Source: Candidatus Eiseniibacteriota bacterium (lineage in GTDB: Bacteria > Joyebacterota > Joyebacteria > Joyebacterales > Joyebacteraceae). From it: a stretch of DNA of 10,090 nucleotides. Within the stretch, counting starts at the first letter, position 1. Every line of letters starts with the position of its first letter. The translations under genes and the position numbers were made by a program. Positions 1 to 10,090 of the stretch are shown in pieces. The stretch spans positions 1 to 10,090 of the forward strand of contig JAUWRQ010000011.1 in NCBI GenBank assembly GCA_030610515.1, in the 5' to 3' direction. The notes beneath the pieces were generated by a model that had not been told where the DNA came from, did not search any database, and worked only from the letters and a program-made list of their open reading frames with translations.

Positions 1-511
1 CCTCATCAAACGCCAGCGTGGCCCCGAAAACATAGTCCATGCCGGCGCCGAATCTCAGGGCGAGTGGGCCGCCGCCCACGGGCATTCGGTAGAAGGCGTA
101 GGCGGAAACCAGCTTGCCGGTGGCTTCGAAGTCTGCATTGTCTGTATAGCTAAACCACCCGTAGTCGTCCTCCACCCAATAGCTGTACCCCCCATCACTG
201 GACAGAGGCACGAATTCCATCCCGACGCCCCAATTCGCATCCAGCAGGTATTCGACGCTCGCTCCGAAGAGGAAACCACCCGTGAGCTCGTCGTCGCTGA
301 AACCCCAATCGATGTCGTCGACGCCTTCGTAGATGTCGCGCACCATGCAACCTACGTCGTCGATCGTATCGTTGACATCCTCGTGTGCGTAGAAGCCGGA
401 TCCCACAAACCCTCCGACTCGAATCTGGCCTGCCCCCGAGGCGACCGAACCGAAGGGCAGCGCACAAGCCAACAGGCAGATCACGAACACCCGGGCGTTT
501 CCGAACTTCAT
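1..511 (-). CDS. Outer-membrane beta-barrel-like protein, N-terminal part (runs off left edge)
   Basis: The frame is open from an ATG at 511 (reading leftwards) to the window edge, giving about 170 residues without a stop. A textbook AGGAGG ribosome site (complement of 519-524) lies 7 bases before the ATG and fixes the start. The protein opens with a signal peptide: basic residues at 2 and 7, a hydrophobic core at 8-20, and likely cleavage near residues 24-27. The mature part alternates short polar and aromatic/glycine stretches (GGFVGSGFYAHED, GGFLFGASVEYLL, LVSAYAFYRM, LRFGAGMDYVFG). These look like amphipathic strands of a small OmpW/OmpA-type barrel, with acidic, Asp-rich loops. It is likely exported to the outer membrane. 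It points away from the hydrogenase operon and nothing suggests a joint function. Family membership is inferred from strand pattern only; the exact family and C-terminus are not visible. Confidence 0.75.
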   Translation of the reverse strand, partial: MKFGNARVFVICLLACALPFGSVASGAGQIRVGGFVGSGFYAHEDVNDTIDDVGCMVRDIYEGVDDIDWGFSDDELTGGFLFGASVEYLLDANWGVGMEFVPLSSDGGYSYWVEDDYGWFSYTDNADFEATGKLVSAYAFYRMPVGGGPLALRFGAGMDYVFGATLAFDE

Positions 512-708
512 CGCAGATCCTCCTCGCGACGACGCCAGCACGCCGAGCGGGACAGCCAACCGGCGATGCGTCGCTTTTCGAATCCTCGCTCCGCCTCTCG
601 CGCACTACGAGCGACGGGCTCCCGCTGCGCGCCACGTCCCCCTTGAACCGGGGCCGACCGAGCACCACTAATCCTACTCAAGCTCATCACAGCTGAAACC
701 GCAGCTTA

Positions 709-1103: not shown

Positions 1104-2171
1104 ATGAGAGAAGTCTTCATCGGAAGAGAGAACCTCAGGAAGCTCATCGGGAGGTGGGCCAAAGAGCGCCGGGTCTACGTTCCGGTCACGTTCGACATCA
1201 TGAACCACGAGGAGACTCCCGACTACGAGCTCGTCGGCGACGCGGTTCCCGAGAACATGCAGCTCCACGGCGCGGCTCCGGCCCACGCTCCCAAGTCGTT
1301 CCTTTTCTACCCGAGGGAAGTCGTGGCCAAGTACCCCTCGAGCGACCCGGAGGCAGACGTCAGCGCTCCGCCCACGATCGTCGTGGGACCGCGAGGCTGT
1401 GACGTTCGGGGACTCCAGAAGTTCGACAAGGTCTACTGGAGCACCGAGAACTTCACCGAGGAGTACGACGATCCGTTCTACATTGAGAAGAGGAAGAACA
1501 CTTTCATAGTCTCCGTCGACTGCACTGCCGCCAAGGAGACCTGCTTCTGTACGCGTGTCGGCGGCGAGCCCTACCCTGAGGACGGATTCGACCTGAACCT
1601 GGCTCCGATTGAGCCGGGTTTCGTTGTTACGGTCGGGTCGGAGAAGGGTGATACACTGCTGGTCGGTAACGACGACCTTCTGATGGAGGTTCGACCCGAG
1701 CATCTTGAGGAGCGGACGCGCAACCGGAACTCGGTGGCGGAGGCCGTGAATCGCCACAACGCCGAGTTCGAGGTCGACGCTGCGTACGACAAGTACGATC
1801 TTGAGGGCACGCTCGACGCCTGGATGGAGGTCACACAGAACTGTGTCGCGTGTTCGGCGTGCAATCGTACGTGCCCCACGTGCACATGCTTCCTCCTCGT
1901 CGACCAGCCGGCCACGGGCGGCTATGAGCGAACGCGCAACTGGGACACCTGCCTCTCGATCGGCTTCGCCCGCACCGGAGGCGGAGGCAACTCGCGCGCG
2001 GCTCTCGCCGAGAGACTCCGGAACAGACTCCGCTGCAAGTTCGAGTACTCGCGAGACAGGTACGGCCTCGTTACCTGCACCGGCTGCGGCAGATGCATCG
2101 ATGTCTGCATGGGCAAGATCGACATGAGGGAAGCCATCAAGCACGTCCTCACGGAGAATGCGAAGGTATGA
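1104..2171 (+). CDS. HydB-like (sulfhydrogenase beta-type) iron-sulfur electron-transfer subunit
   Basis: A 355-residue soluble Fe-S protein of the family that includes the beta subunit of group 3b hydrogenases, where it carries electrons between the flavin subunit and the hydrogenase core. A GPRGCDVRGL segment lies near residue 95. A C-x6-C-x-C motif (C140, C147, C149) precedes GGEPYPEDGFDLNL. The first cluster motif has C247, C250, C253 and C257, with C260 and C262 just after. RTRNWDTC follows, then a C-terminal second cluster motif at C325, C328, C331 and C335. These elements and their order are the HydB signature. The start at 1104 has a GAGAGGG-type ribosome site. A longer in-frame start at 951 would add 51 basic, low-complexity residues with no family match. 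It overlaps the next gene by ATGA and is the first gene of the operon. Confidence 0.85.
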   Translation: MREVFIGRENLRKLIGRWAKERRVYVPVTFDIMNHEETPDYELVGDAVPENMQLHGAAPAHAPKSFLFYPREVVAKYPSSDPEADVSAPPTIVVGPRGCDVRGLQKFDKVYWSTENFTEEYDDPFYIEKRKNTFIVSVDCTAAKETCFCTRVGGEPYPEDGFDLNLAPIEPGFVVTVGSEKGDTLLVGNDDLLMEVRPEHLEERTRNRNSVAEAVNRHNAEFEVDAAYDKYDLEGTLDAWMEVTQNCVACSACNRTCPTCTCFLLVDQPATGGYERTRNWDTCLSIGFARTGGGGNSRAALAERLRNRLRCKFEYSRDRYGLVTCTGCGRCIDVCMGKIDMREAIKHVLTENAKV

Positions 2172-3013
2172 AAAACCTCTACAGGCCAATCGAGAGCGTG
2201 ATCGAGGACATCAAGCCCGAGACGCCGAACATCACGACCTACAGGTTTCGTCCGAAGGAGCCCGTTACGTTCGCGGCCGGGCAGTTCGTCGAGCTGACGG
2301 TTCCCGGAGTCGGGGAGGCTCCGTTCACGCCGTCCTCCAATCCGAACGTGAAGGACACGCTCGAGATCACCATCATGCGGGTCGGGACCGTGACCGCCGC
2401 CCTCGAGAAGATGAAGGTGGGGGACACCGTCGGGCTGCGGGGACCGTACGGGAAGGGCTACAACATGGAGGACTTCTACGGCAAGGAGGTCCTCATCATG
2501 GGCGGCGGCGTGGGCTTGGCCCCGCTGCGCTCCCTCATCCTGGCGCTCTTCGATGAGATCGACAAGTTCAAGAAGATCTCGATCCGCTACGGCGCAAGGA
2601 CCCCCGAGGACATCGTGTACAGAGACCTTCTCCCCGAGTGGGAGAAGATGAAGAACACGGAGGTTCTCCTCACCATCGACGAGCCTCATCCCGAGTGGAG
2701 TGGAACGGTCGGCGTCGTTACCGTCCTCCTGGACGGGCTGCCCCTTCTCACGACGGTCGACGTTGAGGATCTCCCATTCCACGCTGAGAGCGCAGTCGCG
2801 TGCGTCTGTGGACCTCCGATCATGCTCAAGTTCGTGAACATGACGCTTCTGGAGAAGGGCTTCAAGCCGGAGAACATCTATCACTCGATGGAGCGGAACA
2901 TGAGCTGCGGGCTCGGCAAGTGCGGGCACTGCATGATGGGGGAGTACTACATCTGCAAAGACGGTCCCGTCATGACGGCGGCGCAGATAGCGAAGTTCGA
3001 AGATCCGTTCTAG
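2168..3013 (+). CDS. HydG-like (sulfhydrogenase gamma-type) FAD/NAD(P)-binding oxidoreductase subunit
   Basis: A 281-residue flavoprotein of the ferredoxin-NADP reductase fold, related to HydG of group 3b hydrogenases and PyrK of dihydroorotate dehydrogenase. The FAD-binding barrel covers about residues 1-100, with FAAGQFVELTVPG and a GEAPFTPSS segment replacing the usual RxYS flavin motif, as in HydG proteins. The nucleotide-binding half has MGGGVGLAPLRSLI (111-124) and CVCGPPIM (212-219). A C-terminal [2Fe-2S] site uses C247, C252, C255 and C263. It should exchange two electrons with NAD(H) or NADP(H) and pass them singly to the HydB-like partner. NAD versus NADP cannot be told from sequence. 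The ATG overlaps the stop of the preceding gene (ATGA), implying translational coupling and 1:1 assembly. The stop TAG is followed at once by an in-frame TGA. Confidence 0.88.
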   Translation: MKNLYRPIESVIEDIKPETPNITTYRFRPKEPVTFAAGQFVELTVPGVGEAPFTPSSNPNVKDTLEITIMRVGTVTAALEKMKVGDTVGLRGPYGKGYNMEDFYGKEVLIMGGGVGLAPLRSLILALFDEIDKFKKISIRYGARTPEDIVYRDLLPEWEKMKNTEVLLTIDEPHPEWSGTVGVVTVLLDGLPLLTTVDVEDLPFHAESAVACVCGPPIMLKFVNMTLLEKGFKPENIYHSMERNMSCGLGKCGHCMMGEYYICKDGPVMTAAQIAKFEDPF

Positions 3014-3041
3014 TGAGTTCTCGCTCGAGGGGTTAACCGAC

Positions 3042-4730
3042 ATGCCAGAGACCAAGAAGGCGTCGTGTCTCTTCTGTTCTCTCCAGTGCGGGTTCGCAAT
3101 GGAGATGGACGCGGGCGTACCGGTGCGGGTCGACTTCGACACCGAAGCGCGCCAGAACCTGGGCTCGCTGTGCGTCCGGGGACACTACAATCACGAGCTT
3201 CTGACTCATCCCAAGAGGTTCCTGGCCGCGACCGTCAACAGGCGGAGGGTTCCGTGGGCAAGTGGTGTGACCAAGGTCGCGGGCAAGCTTGCTGAGATCA
3301 AGGGGAGCCACGGCGGCGACGCGCTTGGCGTGATCGTCGGGACGGAACTCTCGAACGAGGATTACGAGACGGCCGCGGCGTTCGCGGCGGGCGTCCTGGG
3401 GACCGCTAACCTCGCCGTAGCGTACGACGGGAGCGACTTCCCGTTCCTGACGGGCGGAGGCGCCGGCGACGCGACTCCGGAGGACCTCGACGCGGCCGAC
3501 TGCTTCGTCCTCGTGGGCGACGTGTTCTGGGGACACCCCACCGTGGCCAAGCGCGTGATAGGCGCGCGCCACGGAGCGAGGTCGAACCGCATCTACACGA
3601 TCAACCCTTATCGCACCAACACCGACTGGTTCGCGGACAGGCACATAGCGACGGCCCCGGGCGCCGAGCCCGTCGTGCTGGCCGGCCTTCTTCGCGCCAT
3701 GAACGCCGGCGGCGCTCCGGAGATAGCGCGGTCGAAGGCGGCCGCGGCCGCCGGCATGCCCGAGGCCGAGCTCGCGTCGATCGCCAAGGACATCAAGGAG
3801 CACGAGAAGGTCGTCGTTCTCGTCTCCTCCAGGCTCGGAGACTCGGTGTCGGGTTACCTGACGGGCAAGCTGGCAGCCGATCTCGCGAAGGCGGCAGGCG
3901 GCAAGTACGGTCCGCTCTTCCGCGGCGGGAACGCCATTGGAGCCTTCGAGAGGATCGGGTCGGCCAAGACGGTCCCCGACATCCTCGCGGGCGTCGCGGA
4001 CGGCACCATCAAGGGCCTCGTCGTCTTTGGCCCCGACATCCTCCAGCTCTACCCGGGCGCTCTGGCGGGGGACGACGTAGAGAGGCTCGAGTTCCTGGCC
4101 GCATCCTCCGTGTTCGAGAACGACGTCACGAAGCACAGCGACGTGGGCCTTCCGCAGTCCGTGTGGACCGAGATGGAGGGCAACTACTCCGCGTCGTTCG
4201 GCATGGCGACTGCGGTCGCTCCGGTGACGGCCCCACAGGGCGACGCCACGTCGGTCGCCGAGATGCTGAGTGCGATTGCCAAGGAGATGAGTGCGTCGCT
4301 CGGGGCCACGTCTCCTGCCGCGCACCCGCCGATCGAGATCGACGTTGACGTGGCGCTCTCGAAGCTCGCCGACCTCGGGAAGAGCGAAGAGCTCGATCTC
4401 ATAGAGGCAATCAGCCCGCTTCACAGGTGGGACGGGGCCATAACCGGACGCATGAGTTTCGCGCAGTCGATCTCGCCGTACTGCGACGTCTGGATCGGCG
4501 AGGAAGCGGCGGGCGAGCTCGGAGTGGAACAGGGCTCAACCGTCGCGCTGTCCTCCGACAGAGGTGAGACGCGCATCATCGCCACCGTCACGAGCAGAAT
4601 GCCGGGCGGCCTGATCGCCATACCTAGCTACGTGCCGGATGCCCGCGGTCTTTTCAAGTGGACCGCGAACGCGGGCACGAGGTGGTTTGACGTGTCCGCT
4701 GAGCGGGCGAAGGTTACGCCCGAGGCGTAG
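3042..4730 (+). CDS. Molybdopterin-oxidoreductase-fold protein, NuoG-like, probably without catalytic Mo/W chemistry
   Basis: 562 residues. The N-terminus has the Molybdop_Fe4S4 pattern C9-x2-C12-x3-C16-x27-C44, followed by VRG where formate dehydrogenases usually have VKG. The central domain carries the family's typical stretches: ADCFVLVGDVFWGHP (about 152-166) and INPYRTNTDWFADRHIA (about 187-203). A C-terminal molybdopterin-dinucleotide-binding-type barrel covers about 450-555. In formate dehydrogenase the catalytic Cys or Sec lies some 20-30 residues before the ADxxVLxG strand. Here that stretch (LAVAYDGSDFPF) has neither, and the only other cysteines (C154 and one near 486) fall elsewhere. 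This resembles the inactive domain of NuoG with its N7 cluster but lacks NuoG's N-terminal Fe-S domain. Likely role: structural or electron-relay subunit. An unusual active formate or formylmethanofuran dehydrogenase is less likely. GAGGGG at 3027-3032 is the ribosome site. Confidence 0.75.
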   Translation: MPETKKASCLFCSLQCGFAMEMDAGVPVRVDFDTEARQNLGSLCVRGHYNHELLTHPKRFLAATVNRRRVPWASGVTKVAGKLAEIKGSHGGDALGVIVGTELSNEDYETAAAFAAGVLGTANLAVAYDGSDFPFLTGGGAGDATPEDLDAADCFVLVGDVFWGHPTVAKRVIGARHGARSNRIYTINPYRTNTDWFADRHIATAPGAEPVVLAGLLRAMNAGGAPEIARSKAAAAAGMPEAELASIAKDIKEHEKVVVLVSSRLGDSVSGYLTGKLAADLAKAAGGKYGPLFRGGNAIGAFERIGSAKTVPDILAGVADGTIKGLVVFGPDILQLYPGALAGDDVERLEFLAASSVFENDVTKHSDVGLPQSVWTEMEGNYSASFGMATAVAPVTAPQGDATSVAEMLSAIAKEMSASLGATSPAAHPPIEIDVDVALSKLADLGKSEELDLIEAISPLHRWDGAITGRMSFAQSISPYCDVWIGEEAAGELGVEQGSTVALSSDRGETRIIATVTSRMPGGLIAIPSYVPDARGLFKWTANAGTRWFDVSAERAKVTPEA

Positions 4731-4782
4731 AAACCGGGGCGGATGGCTTGAAGGCCCTCGCCGCTCACACCGGGAGACTTGG

Positions 4783-5265
4783 ATGAACAAGAGGAACGTC
4801 CTGGACTACGGGCGCTGCATCGGCTGTCGAAGCTGTATCGCGGCGTGCTTCTACTCCCACAACGGCCAGGATCATCTCGAGGCCTCGCAGGTCTTGGTCA
4901 ACACGGTGCTGCAGATGAATTGCCGGCACTGCGAGCAGCCGCTCTGCGAGGCGGCGTGTCCGCAGGAGGCCATCAAGCGGCGCGACGATGGTCTTGTGGT
5001 CCGCAGCAACGTCAAGTGCAGCGGGTGCACATCGTGCGCGCAGGCGTGCCCGTTCGGGGCGATCGACCTCGTGAAGACGCGCCACACGATGCCGAAGTGC
5101 GATCTCTGCAGCTGGCGGACCCTCGAGGAGAAGGACACAATGTGTGCGGGGACGTGTGTGTCGGGCGCCCGGACCTTCGAGGACATCAGCGACACCGAGT
5201 TCCAGAGAGGCAGACCGATGAGGGGCGGACGCACCGTCGAGAAGACCGTGCGGCGCGAGCACTAG
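4783..5265 (+). CDS. HycB/HydN-like polyferredoxin with four [4Fe-4S] sites
   Basis: 160 residues with exactly sixteen cluster-type cysteines in four groups: C12, 15, 18, 22; C47, 50, 55, 59; C79, 82, 85, 89; and C106, 109, 121, 125. This is the layout of the Fe-S electron-transfer subunits of molybdopterin enzymes (HycB, HydN, DmsB, FdnB). Clusters pair as 1/4 and 2/3 to make a wire. There is no signal peptide or membrane anchor, so it is cytoplasmic. Following a molybdopterin-fold gene, as in formate hydrogenlyase-like loci, it probably joins that subunit to the hydrogenase. The start at 4783 is chosen because homology begins immediately (DYGRCIGC) and GGGAG lies 7-8 bases upstream. An upstream in-frame ATG at 4639 lies inside the previous gene and adds arginine-rich sequence without family character. 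Gaps to its neighbours are 52 and 48 bases. Confidence 0.88.
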   Translation: MNKRNVLDYGRCIGCRSCIAACFYSHNGQDHLEASQVLVNTVLQMNCRHCEQPLCEAACPQEAIKRRDDGLVVRSNVKCSGCTSCAQACPFGAIDLVKTRHTMPKCDLCSWRTLEEKDTMCAGTCVSGARTFEDISDTEFQRGRPMRGGRTVEKTVRREH

Positions 5266-5313
5266 AACCCGCGGTTCCAAACGTTCGAACAGGACCAACG
5301 GAGAGGTAACAGG

Positions 5314-6252
5314 ATGGCTTCGACACTGAGCATGATTCTCTACTTCCTGATCTTCCCGGGCCTGCTCTTCACGGCAGCAGTCGGGCTCCTGACGACCTGG
5401 GTGGACAGGAAGGTATCAGCGCGCGTCCAGTGGAGAGTTGGGCCTCCTTGGTATCAGCCCTTCGCTGACATCCTCAAGCTCATGGGGAAGGAGATCGTGA
5501 TCCCCGAGGGCGCGAAGAGGACCGGGTTCCTCCTGGCCCCCCTGGCCGGTCTCGCTGCGGTGGGTGTGGTGTCGATGATCCTGTGGCTGACCAACATGAG
5601 GGGCACGGGCTTCGTGGGCGACCTCATCGGTGTCATCTACCTTCTCACGATCCCCTCTCTCGGCATGATTATCGGGGCCTCCGCGTCCTCGAATCCGCTC
5701 GCCAGCGTCGGCGCCAGCCGCGAGATGAAGCTGGTCCTCGCGTACGAACTCCCGTTCGTGATCGCAATCTTCACCGCGGTCACGAAGATCTCGCCGATGT
5801 CGCTCAGGCTCGATTCCATCATTCAGTACCAGGACGCGAACGGCGTGCTGCTGGGCAGCGCGTCCTGCATCATCGCGTTCATCGTCTGCCTCCTGTGCAT
5901 GCAAGCCAAGCTCACGTATCCGCCTTTCGACATCCCGGAGGCGGAGACCGAGCTCATGGACGGCACACACATGGAGTACTCGGGCCCCGCGCTCGCGGTC
6001 GTCAAGACCACGCAGGCGATGATGTTGTTCACGCTGCCGGTCTTTTTCATCACCATCTTCTGGGGCGGGCTCAAGCTGACCGGCTGGGGCCTCCTCTACA
6101 CGATTGTCAAGTACGTCATCATCGTGACCATCGCGGTACTCATTAAGAACACGAATCCCAGGGTGAGGATCGACCAGGCCGTCCGGTTCTTCTGCGGGCC
6201 TGTGACCGTTCTCGCCATCATCGGCATGATCCTCGCGGTCGCGGGGTTCTAG
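5314..6252 (+). CDS. NuoH/HycD/EchB-like membrane subunit of group 4 hydrogenase
   Basis: 312 residues with about eight hydrophobic membrane segments. It belongs to the complex I subunit 1 family, which docks the peripheral arm and forms the entry of the ion path. Visible family motifs: WVDRKVSARVQWRVGP (29-44), continuing to WYQPFADILKL in the first cytoplasmic loop, then PPFDIPEAETEL (203-214) with EYSG (221-224), and RIDQAVRFF near the C-terminus. The glutamates in the PEAETEL loop correspond to the conserved acidic residues at the quinone-cavity and ion-path junction in complex I. The short loop and the IPEAE form resemble hydrogenase anchors more than true NuoH. GGAGAGG at 5300-5306 is a strong ribosome site. 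Length is normal for the family (about 300-330). Confidence 0.93.
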   Translation: MASTLSMILYFLIFPGLLFTAAVGLLTTWVDRKVSARVQWRVGPPWYQPFADILKLMGKEIVIPEGAKRTGFLLAPLAGLAAVGVVSMILWLTNMRGTGFVGDLIGVIYLLTIPSLGMIIGASASSNPLASVGASREMKLVLAYELPFVIAIFTAVTKISPMSLRLDSIIQYQDANGVLLGSASCIIAFIVCLLCMQAKLTYPPFDIPEAETELMDGTHMEYSGPALAVVKTTQAMMLFTLPVFFITIFWGGLKLTGWGLLYTIVKYVIIVTIAVLIKNTNPRVRIDQAVRFFCGPVTVLAIIGMILAVAGF

Positions 6253-6273
6253 ATCGAACGGAGCGAGGAACGA

Positions 6274-6687
6274 ATGGGCGCAACGAACTGGGGATTCAAG
6301 AAGTCGCTGTGGGTCTTCCATCTGAATGCGGGGGCCTGCAACAACTGCGATATCGAGGTTCTGGACTGCCTCTGTCCGAAGTACGACATCGAACGCTTCG
6401 GGATGAAGCTCGTGGGCAGCGTGAAGCACGCTGACGTGCTTCTAGTGTCGGGCAGCGTTCCGCGCAAGGTGGTGCCGCAGCTCATCGAGGCGTACGAGCA
6501 GGCACCGAAGCCGGTGGCCGTCGTCGCGCTCGGCGCGTGTGGCTGCACCGGAGGGATCTTCAAGGACGGCTACAACTTCGCGGGGCCGATCGACAAGCAC
6601 ATCCCCGTGGACGCCTACGTTCCGGGTTGTCCCCCGAGGCCCGAGGCGATCATCGACGGCATCGTCAAACTCATGGGGAAACTCTAG
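6274..6687 (+). CDS. [NiFe]-hydrogenase small subunit, NuoB/EchC/HycG-like
   Basis: 137 residues, the compact small subunit of group 4 hydrogenases, holding the single [4Fe-4S] cluster next to the Ni-Fe site. Ligands visible: C22 and C25 in GACNNCDIEVL, C89 in LGACGCTGGIF, and C119 in YVPGCPPRPE. The CxxC spacing in the first motif is the hydrogenase form; complex I NuoB has two adjacent cysteines instead. An additional C91 in ACGC is common in hydrogenase relatives. The gene starts 21 bases after the NuoH-like stop, with a purine-rich GCGAGGAA before the ATG. The protein has no signal peptide, so the catalytic arm faces the cytoplasm. Confidence 0.93.
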   Translation: MGATNWGFKKSLWVFHLNAGACNNCDIEVLDCLCPKYDIERFGMKLVGSVKHADVLLVSGSVPRKVVPQLIEAYEQAPKPVAVVALGACGCTGGIFKDGYNFAGPIDKHIPVDAYVPGCPPRPEAIIDGIVKLMGKL

Positions 6688-6751
6688 GAACGGGGCGTCC
6701 GTCCGAAGGCTGAAGAGGGCGCCCGGATCCGGATACGGGAGGGTCGAGACA

Positions 6752-7180
6752 ATGAGCAAGCAAGTTCTCGATGGACTCAAGGCCAAGTTCGGGGACAGGG
6801 TCGACATCTTCGAGCGGAGCGAGCGCCGGGCGTACGTCACCGTCTCGAACGACGACTGGATCCCTGTGACGAGGCACATGTACGAAGAGGCGAAGGGGAG
6901 GCTGGCGACGGCGACGGGGAGCGACAGGAGCACGGGTGTGGAGCTTCTCTACCACTTCGCGTTCGACAGGGACGGAACGGTGGTGAACATTCGGACGACG
7001 CTTCCGAAGCCGTTCCCGAAGATTGAGTCGCTGACGACGTACTACCCGGCTGCGGACTTCATCGAGCGAGAGATCTTCGACTTCCTCGGCGTCGAGTTCA
7101 CGGGCCACCACGATCCACGGAAGATCCTTTCCTCCCACGATCGCCCCGCGGATTTCCACGCGATGAGGAGGGATGAGTAG
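6752..7180 (+). CDS. NuoC-like 30-kDa-type subunit of group 4 hydrogenase
   Basis: 142 residues matching the complex I 30-kDa family, which caps the large subunit and helps assembly; it binds no cofactor. The diagnostic C-terminal stretch is present at about 98-132: YPAADFIEREIFDFLGVEF, then GHHDPRKIL, equivalent to the ER-E-YD-FG--F-GHPDLRRIL signature. The start at 6752 has GGGAGGG at 6737-6743. The upstream extension of the frame to 6539 overlaps the small-subunit gene and is not family-like. Its TAG stop is followed directly by the ATG of the large subunit with no spacer, so translation is probably coupled. In E. coli HycE the two are one fused polypeptide; here they are separate. Confidence 0.92.
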   Translation: MSKQVLDGLKAKFGDRVDIFERSERRAYVTVSNDDWIPVTRHMYEEAKGRLATATGSDRSTGVELLYHFAFDRDGTVVNIRTTLPKPFPKIESLTTYYPAADFIEREIFDFLGVEFTGHHDPRKILSSHDRPADFHAMRRDE

Positions 7181-8353
7181 ATGAGCACGCTCATACCGAT
7201 CGGCCCATTTCATCCCGTCCTCGAGGAGCCCGAGTACATCTCACTGTACGTGGACGGCGAAACGGTCGAGGACGCCGACATAGATCTCGGCCGCATTCAC
7301 CGCGGCATCGAGCTTCTCGCGCAGGAGAAGACCTACGACCAGGACACGTTCCTGGTAGAGAGGATCTGCGGGATCTGCTCGGCCTCCCACAGCTGGGCCG
7401 CGTGCCTGGCGATGGAGGACATCGTCGACGTCGTCATCCCGGACCGCGCCCGCTATCTCAGGACCATCGTCCACGAACTCGAGCGGCTTCACAGCCACAT
7501 GCTCTGGGTGGGGTTGGCCGGGCACATCCTCGGGTATTGGACCGTCTTCATGTGGGGATGGAAGTACAGGGAGCCGGTTCTCGACTGCCTGGAAGCCATC
7601 ACCGGCAACAGGAACAACTACGCGTGGTACTGTCCCGGCGGAGTACGGCGGGACGTGGCGGACGAGATCTGGCCCGGTGTTCTCAAGGCGATGGACGAGT
7701 TCGCCGTCCAGACCGACATGCTCCTTCACGCGATCCTGGACGATCCGGTTATCCTCGGGCGGCTCAAGGGCGTCGGCATTCTCACGACCGAGGACGCGAT
7801 AGCATACGGGACGCTCGGCCCGACGGCGAGAGGGTCCGGCGTGCCCATTGACGTGCGGCGAGACGAGCCGTACGGCGCATATTCCGAGGTCGACTGGGAC
7901 GTCATGGTCCAGGACGGGTGTGACTGCCTGGCGGTCGCGGCGGTGCGGCTTCTCGAGATGCTGGAGTCGGTCAAGATCATAAAGCAGTGCATCGAGAAAC
8001 TACCGGCCGGGCCCATCGCGACGGAAGTCCGCGAGATCCCAAGAGGAGAGGGCATCGGCCACATCGAGGCCCCGCGCGGCGAGACCTTCCACTTCATACG
8101 GTCGAACGGCACGAACATGCCGGAGCGCCACAAGATGAGGGCGCCCACGTTCAACAACATCCCGTCATTCAGGCCCCGCGTGAAGGGCGAGTCGATATCG
8201 GACGCGGTCCTCATCTTCGCCGTCATCGACCCATGCTACAGCTGCACTGAGCGCTTGGCCGTGCTGGGACCGGACGGAAGACCATACATGAAGGGTAAGG
8301 ACCTCATTGCGCTCTCGCATGCGAAGACGGAAGAGCTCAGGAAGAACTCCTAG
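7181..8353 (+). CDS. [NiFe]-hydrogenase large (catalytic) subunit, group 4, NuoD/HycE/EchE-like
   Basis: 390 residues. Both nickel-ligand motifs are intact: ERICGICSASHS (C63 and C66) and IDPCYSCTER (C352 and C355). Complex I NuoD and the MBS sulfur reductase lack one or more of these cysteines, so this should be an active H2-evolving or H2-oxidising subunit in the cytoplasm. TER after the last cysteine is the group 4 form. After R358 there are 32 further residues ending in LRKNS, comparable in position and length to the tail cut from E. coli HycE by HycI. A maturation protease is therefore expected but is not in the window. The ribosome site GAGGAGGG (about 7165-7172) lies inside the NuoC-like gene's end. 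Subgroup (4a, 4e, 4g or other) cannot be settled without a tree. Confidence 0.95.
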   Translation: MSTLIPIGPFHPVLEEPEYISLYVDGETVEDADIDLGRIHRGIELLAQEKTYDQDTFLVERICGICSASHSWAACLAMEDIVDVVIPDRARYLRTIVHELERLHSHMLWVGLAGHILGYWTVFMWGWKYREPVLDCLEAITGNRNNYAWYCPGGVRRDVADEIWPGVLKAMDEFAVQTDMLLHAILDDPVILGRLKGVGILTTEDAIAYGTLGPTARGSGVPIDVRRDEPYGAYSEVDWDVMVQDGCDCLAVAAVRLLEMLESVKIIKQCIEKLPAGPIATEVREIPRGEGIGHIEAPRGETFHFIRSNGTNMPERHKMRAPTFNNIPSFRPRVKGESISDAVLIFAVIDPCYSCTERLAVLGPDGRPYMKGKDLIALSHAKTEELRKNS

Positions 8354-8370
8354 TCCCCGGGGGTAGAGAG

Positions 8371-10090
8371 ATGCCACAGCTGCTCATACCGATCGTCGTC
8401 CCGGCCATAGCCGGCGGGCTCTGCCTTCTCATTCCGAGAAGGGTGAAGTTCGTAAGGGAGCTCCTGAGCCTGTTCGCCCTCGCGTGTACTTTCACCGTAG
8501 CGCTACGGCTCTTCGGTCAGTGGCCGCTTTCGTATGTGAAGGACTGGGTGGTGCTGGGTGGGCTCACGGTTCAGTTCGACCTTCTCCTCAACCACTTCAG
8601 CGCATTCGTCATCGTGTTCGTCGGGCTCTTCGGGCTGGGCGTCGGACTCTACTCGATGTCTTGGCTCTCGCCCGAGCACGACGGGCGCCGCTACTACGCG
8701 TTCCTTCTCTGGACGGTGGCCGCGAGCTCGGGGGCGGTGCTGGCGAACAACCTCCTGGTGCTCCTGGTCTTCTGGGAAGCACTGACGGCGATCCTCTTCC
8801 TCTACGTGAACACGGGGTTAAAGAAGACCGAGGCGTCGGGGGGCGCGTCGAAGAGCTTCATCATGCTGGGCTTGTCCGACGCGGCGCTCTTCATCGCAGT
8901 CGCCATGATCTGGGTGCGCTTCGGCACGCTCAACATGAACGAGCTGTCGATCTTCGTCGGAGACGGGATGACGACGACCATCTACATCCTCATGATGATC
9001 GGCGCCATCACGAAGGCCGGCGCGATGCCGTTCCACACGTGGATCCCGGCGGCCGCGAAGGGAGCACCGACGCCCGTCATGGCGCTCCTTCCAGCCTCGA
9101 TCGACAAGCTCCTGGGCATCTATCTTCTGGCTCGCATCAGCCTCGATATCTTCAGCGTCGGTCACGGGATGATGCTTCTCCTCATGATCATCGGCGCCGT
9201 CACGATCTTGGGCGCCGTCTTGATGGCGCTCATCCAGCACGACCTCAAGGTCCTCCTCTCGTACCACGCGATCAGCCAGGTCGGATACATGGTGCTGGGC
9301 ATCGGGACGGGAGTCCCGATCGGGATCGCGGGCGGCATCTTCCACATGCTCAACCACGCGATCTACAAGGCGTGCCTCTTCCTCTGCGCCGGCTCCATCG
9401 AGAAACAGGCCGGGACGACCGAGATATCGAAGCTAGGCGGTCTCGCGCGGGCGATGCCGGTGACGTTCGTGACGTGCGCAATAGCCGCTTTTGCCATTTC
9501 CGGCGTTCCGCCGTTCAACGGGTTCGTCTCGAAGTGGATGGTCTACTCGGGCCTCGTCGAGCTCGGCGCCCGGGGGATGAACTACTACTGGATCTTCCTC
9601 GTCGCGGCGCTCTTCGGCAGCGCGCTGACACTGGCGTCGTTCGTGAAGGTGCTCTACTCGGGCTTCCTCGGACAGCGGCCGAGCAAGCTCGCGCAGGTCC
9701 GCGAGGCTCCGTGGGCGATGCAGGTTCCGATGATCGCCCTGGCGATACTGTGTGTCGCGTTCGGCGTCTGGGCCAAGTTCCCGATCGAGCGCTTCATCAA
9801 CCCGATAGTGCACGGCGCGGTCACGATGGGCGCGAGGGGCGGGATCGATCTGGGGGTCGGTGCGTGGAGCCCCGGGGCCGCGACCACTCTTATGGTGCTC
9901 GGCATCGTGTTCGGGTTCCTGGTCTTCCTGGCCGGCAGGATGACGAGAATCCGTACCGGACACATCTTCATCGGTGGGCACAAGCCACCCGCGAATCTCG
10001 ACTCGATGCACGTTTCAGGCACGGGCTTCTACAACACGATCCGCGAGACGAAGGGACTCTCGGGCATCTTCGCGAACGCGGAGCAGCGCA
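8371..10090 (+). CDS. NuoL/HyfB/MrpD-like ion-translocating membrane subunit (cut by window end)
   Basis: The frame is open from ATG 8371 to the right edge, 573 complete codons with no stop. It is a multi-pass antiporter-like protein. Family markers include FWEALTA with E136 (the conserved TM5 glutamate), ITKAGAMPFHTWIP with K215 and H222, PVMALLPASIDKLLG with K246, LSYHAISQVGYM, and FHMLNHAIYKACLFL with H325, H329 and K333. These are the charged residues that line the ion channel in complex I and Mrp antiporters. After the last clear membrane helix (about 503-527) a polar tail contains HIFIGGHKPP and FYNTIRETKGLSGIF, as in hydrogenase-type members that continue past the core. The NHAIYKA form also favours the hydrogenase branch. 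It should pump H+ or Na+. The start is chosen by the 17-base gap and a modest GGGGGTAGAGAG site. Confidence 0.93.
   Translation, partial: MPQLLIPIVVPAIAGGLCLLIPRRVKFVRELLSLFALACTFTVALRLFGQWPLSYVKDWVVLGGLTVQFDLLLNHFSAFVIVFVGLFGLGVGLYSMSWLSPEHDGRRYYAFLLWTVAASSGAVLANNLLVLLVFWEALTAILFLYVNTGLKKTEASGGASKSFIMLGLSDAALFIAVAMIWVRFGTLNMNELSIFVGDGMTTTIYILMMIGAITKAGAMPFHTWIPAAAKGAPTPVMALLPASIDKLLGIYLLARISLDIFSVGHGMMLLLMIIGAVTILGAVLMALIQHDLKVLLSYHAISQVGYMVLGIGTGVPIGIAGGIFHMLNHAIYKACLFLCAGSIEKQAGTTEISKLGGLARAMPVTFVTCAIAAFAISGVPPFNGFVSKWMVYSGLVELGARGMNYYWIFLVAALFGSALTLASFVKVLYSGFLGQRPSKLAQVREAPWAMQVPMIALAILCVAFGVWAKFPIERFINPIVHGAVTMGARGGIDLGVGAWSPGAATTLMVLGIVFGFLVFLAGRMTRIRTGHIFIGGHKPPANLDSMHVSGTGFYNTIRETKGLSGIFANAEQR

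What the first reader, a model, noticed from the sequence alone, without database searches (positions are those of the whole stretch)
1104..10090. Chimeric hydrogenase: sulfhydrogenase-type NAD(P)H module plus NuoG-like subunit on a proton-pumping group 4 hydrogenase
Seen: HydB-like and HydG-like genes, in the same beta-gamma order as soluble group 3b hydrogenases, head a single tight operon that continues with a molybdopterin-fold protein, a four-cluster polyferredoxin and a full set of group 4 membrane-hydrogenase genes. Known: Ech and Mbh take electrons from ferredoxin, formate hydrogenlyase from formate; HydBG normally partners a soluble group 3 hydrogenase. Inferred: this would be a membrane-bound, ion-translocating NAD(P)H-linked hydrogenase, either using ion-motive force to drive H2 release from NAD(P)H or conserving energy while oxidising H2. 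It mirrors complex I (NADH module, NuoG-like bridge, membrane arm) assembled from hydrogenase parts.
Basis: partly seen in the sequence, partly recalled or inferred. Interest (0 to 1): 0.75.

Follow-up and report, generated by a model that had tools for sequence, protein, structure and literature searches.

The report
NAD(P)H-linked ion-pumping hydrogenase operon
The contig carries a real, widely conserved gene set for a membrane hydrogenase that is predicted to exchange electrons between NAD(P)H and hydrogen gas while moving ions across the membrane, much as respiratory complex I does between NADH and quinone; an earlier paper noticed a like gene set in another lineage, and no test of it was found.

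Summary
HydB/HydG, a molybdopterin-fold protein (MoG), a 16-Cys HycB and NuoH-B-C-D-L-like genes lie on one strand with gaps of at most 64 bp; the contig ends in NuoL. The large subunit keeps both Ni-Fe CxxC motifs. In the host phylum the large subunit and HydB occur in 20 of 20 genomes and MoG in 18 of 20 (both misses have contig ends there); relatives add Mrp genes and a NuoI-like gene. Outside it, 27 of 27 checkable loci of this hydrogenase clade carry HydB-HydG upstream, against 4 of 24 loci of other NuoD/group 4 relatives. MoG occurs in only 6 of those 27. MoG is a dead formate-dehydrogenase fold rather than a clear NuoG: 4Fe-4S site kept, FDH Sec/Cys, His and Arg lost. Best reading: an ion-translocating NAD(P)H:H2 oxidoreductase in which MoG bridges HydBG to HycB. 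PMC6349859 had described asrA, asrB, cooF, a Mo-protein and Mrp genes beside such a hydrogenase in Saganbacteria. Added here: HydBG linkage across the clade, MoG's lost active site, and doubt about the "ferredoxin-dependent" label used for such enzymes. Complex formation, cofactor, direction and pumping are untested.

The parts
1104..2171 (+). HydB/AsrA-like iron-sulfur subunit (355 aa), sulfhydrogenase beta type
   Evidence: of the 11 Cys from 250 to 335, 10 are kept in 53 of 53 rows (C311 in 40), C247 in 52 (rows include the window and duplicate loci)
2168..3013 (+). HydG/AsrB-like FAD/NAD(P)H-binding subunit with 2Fe-2S Cys 247/252/255/263 (281 aa)
   Evidence: the four Cys kept in 54 of 54 rows, GGG 112-114 in 53-54 of 54
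3042..4730 (+). MoG: molybdopterin-oxidoreductase-fold protein (562 aa), 4Fe-4S Cys 9/12/16/44 kept, FDH catalytic residues lost
4783..5265 (+). HycB/CooF-like 16-Cys polyferredoxin (160 aa)
5314..6252 (+). NuoH-like membrane subunit; six of seven acidic residues of E. coli NuoH compared are identical (E36 is Asp)
6274..6687 (+). NuoB-like hydrogenase small subunit
6752..7180 (+). NuoC-like subunit
7181..8353 (+). [NiFe] group 4 hydrogenase large subunit (NuoD homologue), RICGIC and DPCYSC present
8371..10089 (+). NuoL/antiporter-like subunit, cut by the contig end; E144, D178, K229, K399 of E. coli NuoL kept, H254 and D400 not

Best explanation
A membrane-bound, ion-translocating NAD(P)H:H2 oxidoreductase. 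HydG (FAD, 2Fe-2S) exchanges electrons with NAD(P)H and passes them through the clusters of HydB. MoG, a formate-dehydrogenase fold without a working Mo site, is the structural and 4Fe-4S bridge that hands them to HycB; they run through HycB (and the NuoI-like protein encoded later in relatives' operons) to NuoB and the Ni-Fe site of NuoD, where H+ and H2 interconvert. NuoH couples this to the NuoL- and Mrp-type subunits, so NAD(P)H-linked H2 turnover is tied to the ion gradient. Shown: gene content, order, conservation, ligand and active-site residues, predicted fold of MoG. Inferred from homology: cofactor, electron path, complex formation, pumping. Direction is a guess from textbook potentials: NADPH at 1-10 Pa H2 would allow about 1.0-1.4 ions per H2, NADH would be near equilibrium, and at high H2 the reaction would favour H2 oxidation (potentials recalled). 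I expect reversible redox balancing, H2-evolving at low H2.
For: HydB and HydG match sulfhydrogenase I beta and gamma. HydBG lies upstream in 27 of 27 loci of this large-subunit clade outside the host phylum whose contig reaches far enough (33 fetched, 6 cut) and in 5 of 5 such Margulisiibacteriota loci, against 4 of 17 plus 0 of 7 control loci (Fisher p about 1e-10 for 27 of 27 v 4 of 24, not corrected for relatedness). A distant second HydB (34-43%) is seen in only 3 of 20 host-phylum genomes. Ni-Fe motifs intact; most NuoL and NuoH charges compared kept. MoG lacks the FDH Sec/Cys140-His141 pair and Arg333 yet keeps the 4Fe-4S Cys. HycB cluster I is kept in 29 of 29 distinct MoG+ loci but at least 3 of its 4 Cys are lost in 8 of 21 MoG- loci, as expected if MoG feeds that cluster.
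Against: No protein-protein contact was tested. HydG and HydB score below the curated cut-offs of every NAD(P)H-hydrogenase equivalog listed, so cofactor use is by analogy. HycB and the NuoI-like protein could accept ferredoxin directly. MoG is absent from 21 of 27 outside loci, so it is not essential to the design. HydBG also stands beside 4 of 17 control loci, so it is not exclusive to the clade. The HycB cluster I link is weak once relatedness counts: four changes on the tree, no power in the paired test.
Confidence: 0.7

Rival explanations
1. A ferredoxin-driven Mbh-type hydrogenase (the usual reading of group 4g), with HydBG as a side branch so that ferredoxin and NAD(P)H are used together or ferredoxin passes electrons to NAD(P)+.
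For: Four-cluster HycB and, in relatives, a NuoI-like ferredoxin protein could dock ferredoxin. Passages in PMC8542988, PMC9723716, PMC10290634 and PMC11257099 assign 4g to ferredoxin or presume it. Ferredoxin would give the best energy yield.
Against: HydBG is linked in 27 of 27 outside loci. No experiment on 4g appears in the passages seen, and HydDB calls 4g uncharacterised. HydG resembles sulfhydrogenase gamma and DHODB-type reductases, which are not bifurcating flavin subunits (recalled).
Confidence: 0.2
2. A formate hydrogenlyase: MoG is a working Mo/W formate dehydrogenase and HydBG an add-on that also reduces NAD(P)+.
For: Best NCBIfam hit is FDH alpha (TIGR01591, 121 bits, cut-off 666); FDH is the top fold match; in E. 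coli FHL, FdhF sits on HycB (PMC9474812 passages).
Against: None of 19 MoG rows has the Sec/Cys140-His141 pair or Arg333 (one has Cys at the first column but Asp at the second), and Lys44 is Arg in all 19. The seven Margulisiibacteriota MoGs aligned also lack the C-terminal dinucleotide-binding part.
Confidence: 0.04
3. HydBG is an AsrAB-like or sulfhydrogenase module that reduces sulfite or sulfur and is only co-transcribed with the hydrogenase.
For: HydG's best NCBIfam hit is AsrB (212.8 bits, below the 288.6 cut-off); PMC6349859 named such genes asrA and asrB.
Against: No AsrC-sized gene lies between HydG and MoG in the window (28 bp gap) nor between HydG and HycB/NuoH in the 21 MoG-less outside loci (at most 683 bp from HydG to NuoH); AsrC was not searched for elsewhere. 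Linkage to the hydrogenase holds in 27 of 27 loci from 23 family codes.
Confidence: 0.06

Closest known systems
'Enigmatic' group 4 [NiFe] hydrogenase region of Saganbacteria RX5A (Matheus Carnevali et al. 2019, PMC6349859; passages seen)
   Same: Same parts list: hydrogenase subunits, Mrp-like subunits, an unclassifiable molybdopterin oxidoreductase, cooF, asrA, asrB; nearest hydrogenases there in Zixibacteria and Omnitrophica
   Different: The passages seen give no electron donor and suggest Mbh-like function; they do not state clade-wide HydBG linkage or a lost Mo site
P. furiosus sulfhydrogenase I (group 3b), PDB 9nez
   Same: HydB and HydG homologues
   Different: Soluble, with a group 3b large and small subunit and no membrane arm (recalled)
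P. furiosus MBH (group 4d), PDB 6cfw
   Same: Large subunit (best PDB hit, 9.5e-76); MbhD/E- and Mnh-type genes in relatives
   Different: Ferredoxin-linked (recalled); here HydBG, HycB, sometimes MoG, and a separate NuoL-type subunit
E. coli formate hydrogenlyase, PDB 7z0s/7z0t
   Same: Mo-fold protein, HycB, and NuoB/D/H/I homologues; large subunit 4.9e-74
   Different: FdhF is catalytic; no HydBG; a single antiporter-like subunit, HycC (PMC9474812 passages)
Respiratory complex I and its NuoG subunit
   Same: Plan: NADH module, Mo-fold subunit without a Mo site, membrane arm
   Different: MoG lacks the NuoG N-terminal cluster domain; Ni-Fe site instead of quinone site
StnABC transhydrogenase (PMC10482914 passages, PDB 8oh5) and NfnABC (9bov)
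   Same: Catalytically inactive FdhF-like domain in a NAD(P)H enzyme; StnC's is described as a non-functional electron branch needed for stability or assembly
   Different: No hydrogenase or membrane arm described in the passages seen

Membership tests
[NiFe] group 4 (energy-converting) hydrogenase | Two CxxC Ni-Fe motifs in the large subunit | tested here: met
   RICGIC and DPCYSC in the window; RICGIC and DPC(Y/F)(S/C)C in all 28 relative rows; EcNuoD has neither
[NiFe] group 4 (energy-converting) hydrogenase | NuoH- and antiporter-like membrane subunits in the operon | tested here: met
HydDB subgroup 4g | Assignment by the HydDB classifier | not testable with these tools
   HydDB is not on hand; its paper describes 4g as a loose class of unknown function (PMC5037454 passages)
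Group 3b sulfhydrogenase beta/gamma (ShyB/HydB, ShyC/HydG NCBIfam equivalogs) | Score above the curated cut-off | tested here: not met
   HydB 160 of 690 and 150 of 750 bits; HydG 177 of 650 and 171 of 600: relatives, not members
Anaerobic sulfite reductase AsrAB | Score above the curated cut-offs for AsrA and AsrB | tested here: not met
   113 of 323 and 213 of 289 bits
Formate dehydrogenase alpha | Catalytic Sec/Cys-His pair and Arg | tested here: not met
   (roles recalled)
Formate dehydrogenase alpha | N-terminal 4Fe-4S site with four Cys | tested here: met
   Cys 9, 12, 16, 44
NuoG (complex I) | N-terminal 2Fe-2S/His-cluster domains before the Mo fold | tested here: not met
   MoG starts at the Mo-Fe4S4 domain (residues 4-53); no PF13510 or PF10588 hit
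NuoG (complex I) | Common clade with NuoG in a tree | tested here: inconclusive
   Tree puts NuoG on the FdhF side and MoG with Nap/Nas (97/96), but a MoG+NuoG clade is not rejected, p-AU 0.083
NAD(P)H-linked ion-pumping enzyme (works like) | NAD(P)H-dependent H2 turnover coupled to ion transport | not testable with these tools
   needs biochemistry

The most novel reading that the evidence does not exclude
A whole clade of membrane hydrogenases spread over many bacterial lineages, of the sort usually filed as ferredoxin-dependent, is in fact a hydrogenase counterpart of complex I: NAD(P)H enters through a sulfhydrogenase-type HydBG module that is constant in the clade. In some lineages a formate dehydrogenase has been turned into a dead bridging subunit independently of NuoG, and where it was lost the matching HycB cluster decayed.
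Probability: 0.45. Interest if true: 0.75.

Novelty: new variant of a known kind. Interest (0 to 1): 0.57.

Why it matters
If right, H2 production by many uncultured anaerobes would be tied to NAD(P)H and an ion gradient rather than to ferredoxin, which changes energy budgets and the H2 levels at which they can grow, and annotations of Mrp-linked hydrogenases would need revision. It also offers a second case of a complex I-like plan (NAD(P)H module, dead Mo-fold subunit, membrane arm), useful for asking how complex I was assembled.

Tried and rejected
Rejected: MoG as an active formate dehydrogenase. MoG as a NuoG orthologue: weakened, not excluded. HydBG as a borrowed partner of a group 3b enzyme: the second [NiFe] enzyme, found in 15 of 20 host-phylum genomes, is VhuA/Mvh-like in the own genome (441 bits, below the 800 cut-off). 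Chance neighbourhood.

Results against or limiting the reading: MoG is in only 6 of 27 outside loci. Four of 17 control loci also have HydBG (L185, L186, L189, and L197, where a group 3b-like large subunit may be the owner). The 17 were chosen by me from the hits at 35-48% identity, mostly the highest-scoring; three of them (L198, L200, L201) lack both Ni-Fe motifs, so they are NuoD-type and not hydrogenase controls; without them the control figure is 4 of 21. One of the 7 Margulisiibacteriota controls (L072) is a 5.9 kb contig. HydB gave a single match in 14 of 20 host genomes; G002, G003 and G004 have a distant second one; G009, G015 and G017 show two pieces at contig ends (in G009 the contigs overlap by 598 bp at 89% identity, so a variant copy is possible). 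PF01512 (NuoF/RnfC type) is in 20 of 20 genomes, so the hosts have other NADH enzymes. The HycB cluster I link has no power once relatedness is counted.

Rows dropped before counts: 6 of 33 outside loci cut at contig ends (L156, L157, L159, L168, L178, L181); L199 (clade fragment) from the controls; six duplicate loci (L079, L081, L083, L087, L088, L089) from the 29 MoG+ loci, though they are in the 53-54 row counts. HydB is split over two frames in L155 and L169, and NuoC was not detected in L180, L182, L183.
Full report
What is in the window. The window is the whole of contig C279 (10,090 bp) of a fragmented MAG of 1.67 Mb, 57% complete. Nine genes on the + strand run from 1104 to the contig end with gaps of at most 64 bp; HydB and HydG overlap by 4 bp. 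Pfam and NCBIfam give HydB/AsrA-like, HydG/AsrB-like, a molybdopterin-oxidoreductase fold (here MoG), a HycB-like polyferredoxin, and NuoH, NuoB, NuoC, NuoD and NuoL homologues. The NuoD homologue keeps both Ni-Fe motifs, RICGIC and DPCYSC, so it is a hydrogenase and not a complex I subunit; its best PDB matches are the Pyrococcus MBH and E. coli FHL large subunits.

Host. Named relatives of MoG come mostly from MAGs called Candidatus Eisenbacteria, and one from Ca. Effluviviaceae Genus IV. That last record is the same DNA as the tool's 'same genus' genome G018 (100% over 19,900 bp), so the host is most likely Ca. Effluviviacota. The paper that named this phylum (PMC11323493, passages seen) reports group 4 hydrogenases and mrp genes, and that a complete complex I was not found; the passages seen do not mention a HydBG module.

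Conservation inside the phylum. In the 20 genomes held, the large subunit is in 20 of 20, HydB in 20 of 20 and MoG in 18 of 20. At the two misses a contig ends where MoG should be: in G005 within its first codons (that contig is L021), in G019 just after HydB, with the next contig starting in HycB. MoG and the large subunit lie on one contig in 14 of the 18; in the other four the contigs end inside the operon. Longer contigs show the rest; Pfam names it, on L017, MbhD/MbhE, MnhB, a NuoK-like chain, a second antiporter subunit, MnhE, MrpF and MnhG, followed in L086 and others by a ferredoxin-domain protein similar to the NuoI-like one of L019.

Conservation outside the phylum. Of 74 genomes in the phylum of locus L019's genome (record named Margulisiibacteriota), 10 have a large subunit at E<=1e-100. 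Ten loci at 56-60% identity were laid out: five reach far enough and all have HydB-HydG-MoG-HycB; two more (L019, L061) show the part their contig allows and three are cut before it. Seven loci of a second hydrogenase type (45-48%) show neither HydBG nor MoG. In a broader sample of 386 genomes, 52 have a hit at E<=1e-120, 33 of them outside the host phylum, from 26 family codes; their phyla are not told. All 33 loci were fetched. Six are cut at contig ends; in the other 27 of 27 (23 family codes), HydB and HydG lie upstream of (MoG)-HycB-NuoH-B-D, with NuoC found in 24. Of 17 control loci at 35-48% identity, 4 have HydBG nearby; 14 of the 17 keep at least the C-terminal Ni-Fe motif and 3 keep neither. 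Fisher's test for 27 of 27 against 4 of 24 gives p about 1e-10, without correction for relatedness. So HydBG is the constant electron module of this hydrogenase clade as far as sampled. MoG is not: it is found in 6 of the 27, and in the other 21 at most 683 bp separate HydG from NuoH, room for HycB only.

How it probably works. HydG and HydB keep their flavin, NAD(P) and Fe-S residues: the four HydG 2Fe-2S Cys in 54 of 54 rows and 10 HydB Cys in 53 of 53. In E. coli FHL, FdhF sits on HycB, which relays electrons onward (PMC9474812, passages); MoG would take FdhF's place as a bridge. In line with this, HycB keeps the Cys of cluster I (first three and last Cys; assignment recalled) in 29 of 29 distinct MoG+ loci (one has a His at one position), but loses at least three of the four in 8 of 21 MoG- loci, and all four in 7. 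Fisher p is 0.0012 for the strict and 0.0004 for the relaxed count, but on the tree there are only four changes, at least three forced by well-supported branches, all in the MoG- part, and the paired test has no power. This is a hint, not proof. NuoL and NuoH keep most of the charged residues compared (list recalled). Energetics with recalled potentials: NADPH at 10 Pa H2 gives about -14 kJ per H2 (one ion at 150 mV), NADH at -280 mV about +3, ferredoxin about -39.

What was known. The closest report is PMC6349859 (passages seen): in Saganbacteria RX5A an 'enigmatic' group 4 hydrogenase with Mrp-like subunits, an unclassified molybdopterin oxidoreductase, cooF, asrA and asrB. Passages in PMC8542988, PMC9723716, PMC10290634 and PMC11257099 call 4g enzymes ferredoxin-dependent or presumably so; HydDB calls 4g uncharacterised. 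Whether the present clade is HydDB 4g could not be tested, so that the 4g label applies to it is my assumption. My searches for a characterised NAD(P)H-linked group 4 complex with HydBG (listings) showed none; the library lacks most subscription journals.

Verdict. It is a new variant of a known kind, already glimpsed in print. What is added here: HydBG linkage holds across the clade as sampled, MoG is a dead FDH-fold subunit and optional, and the ferredoxin label in common use deserves a test.

Noticed in passing
L185, L186, L189: HydB-HydG next to a differently arranged group 4 hydrogenase; L186 and L189 also carry Mo-fold proteins without the FDH Cys-His pair and Arg. A second hydrogenase type may have taken the same module.
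   Followed up: partly
L167 and L169: An FdhF-like gene lies upstream of HydB in these MoG-less operons; in L167 it keeps the Cys, His and Arg (residues of L169 not checked).
   Followed up: partly
L019, L060, L061, L062, L064, L066, L067: A TPR protein of about 250 aa sits between HycB and NuoH in most Margulisiibacteriota operons but not in the window.
   Followed up: no
L124 (own genome C251): A second [NiFe] hydrogenase, VhuA/VhuG-like, beside a sensor kinase-like gene (the kinase judged by eye).
   Followed up: partly
window 2-559, minus strand: Open frame of 186 aa running off the contig, no Pfam hit; looks like a secreted barrel-type protein by eye.
   Followed up: no
window 8255-8350: The large subunit continues 32 residues past DPCYSCTER; clade relatives align nearly to its end while more distant hits mostly stop earlier. 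This suggests a C-terminal peptide removed on maturation.
   Followed up: no
Identity by length only.
   Followed up: no
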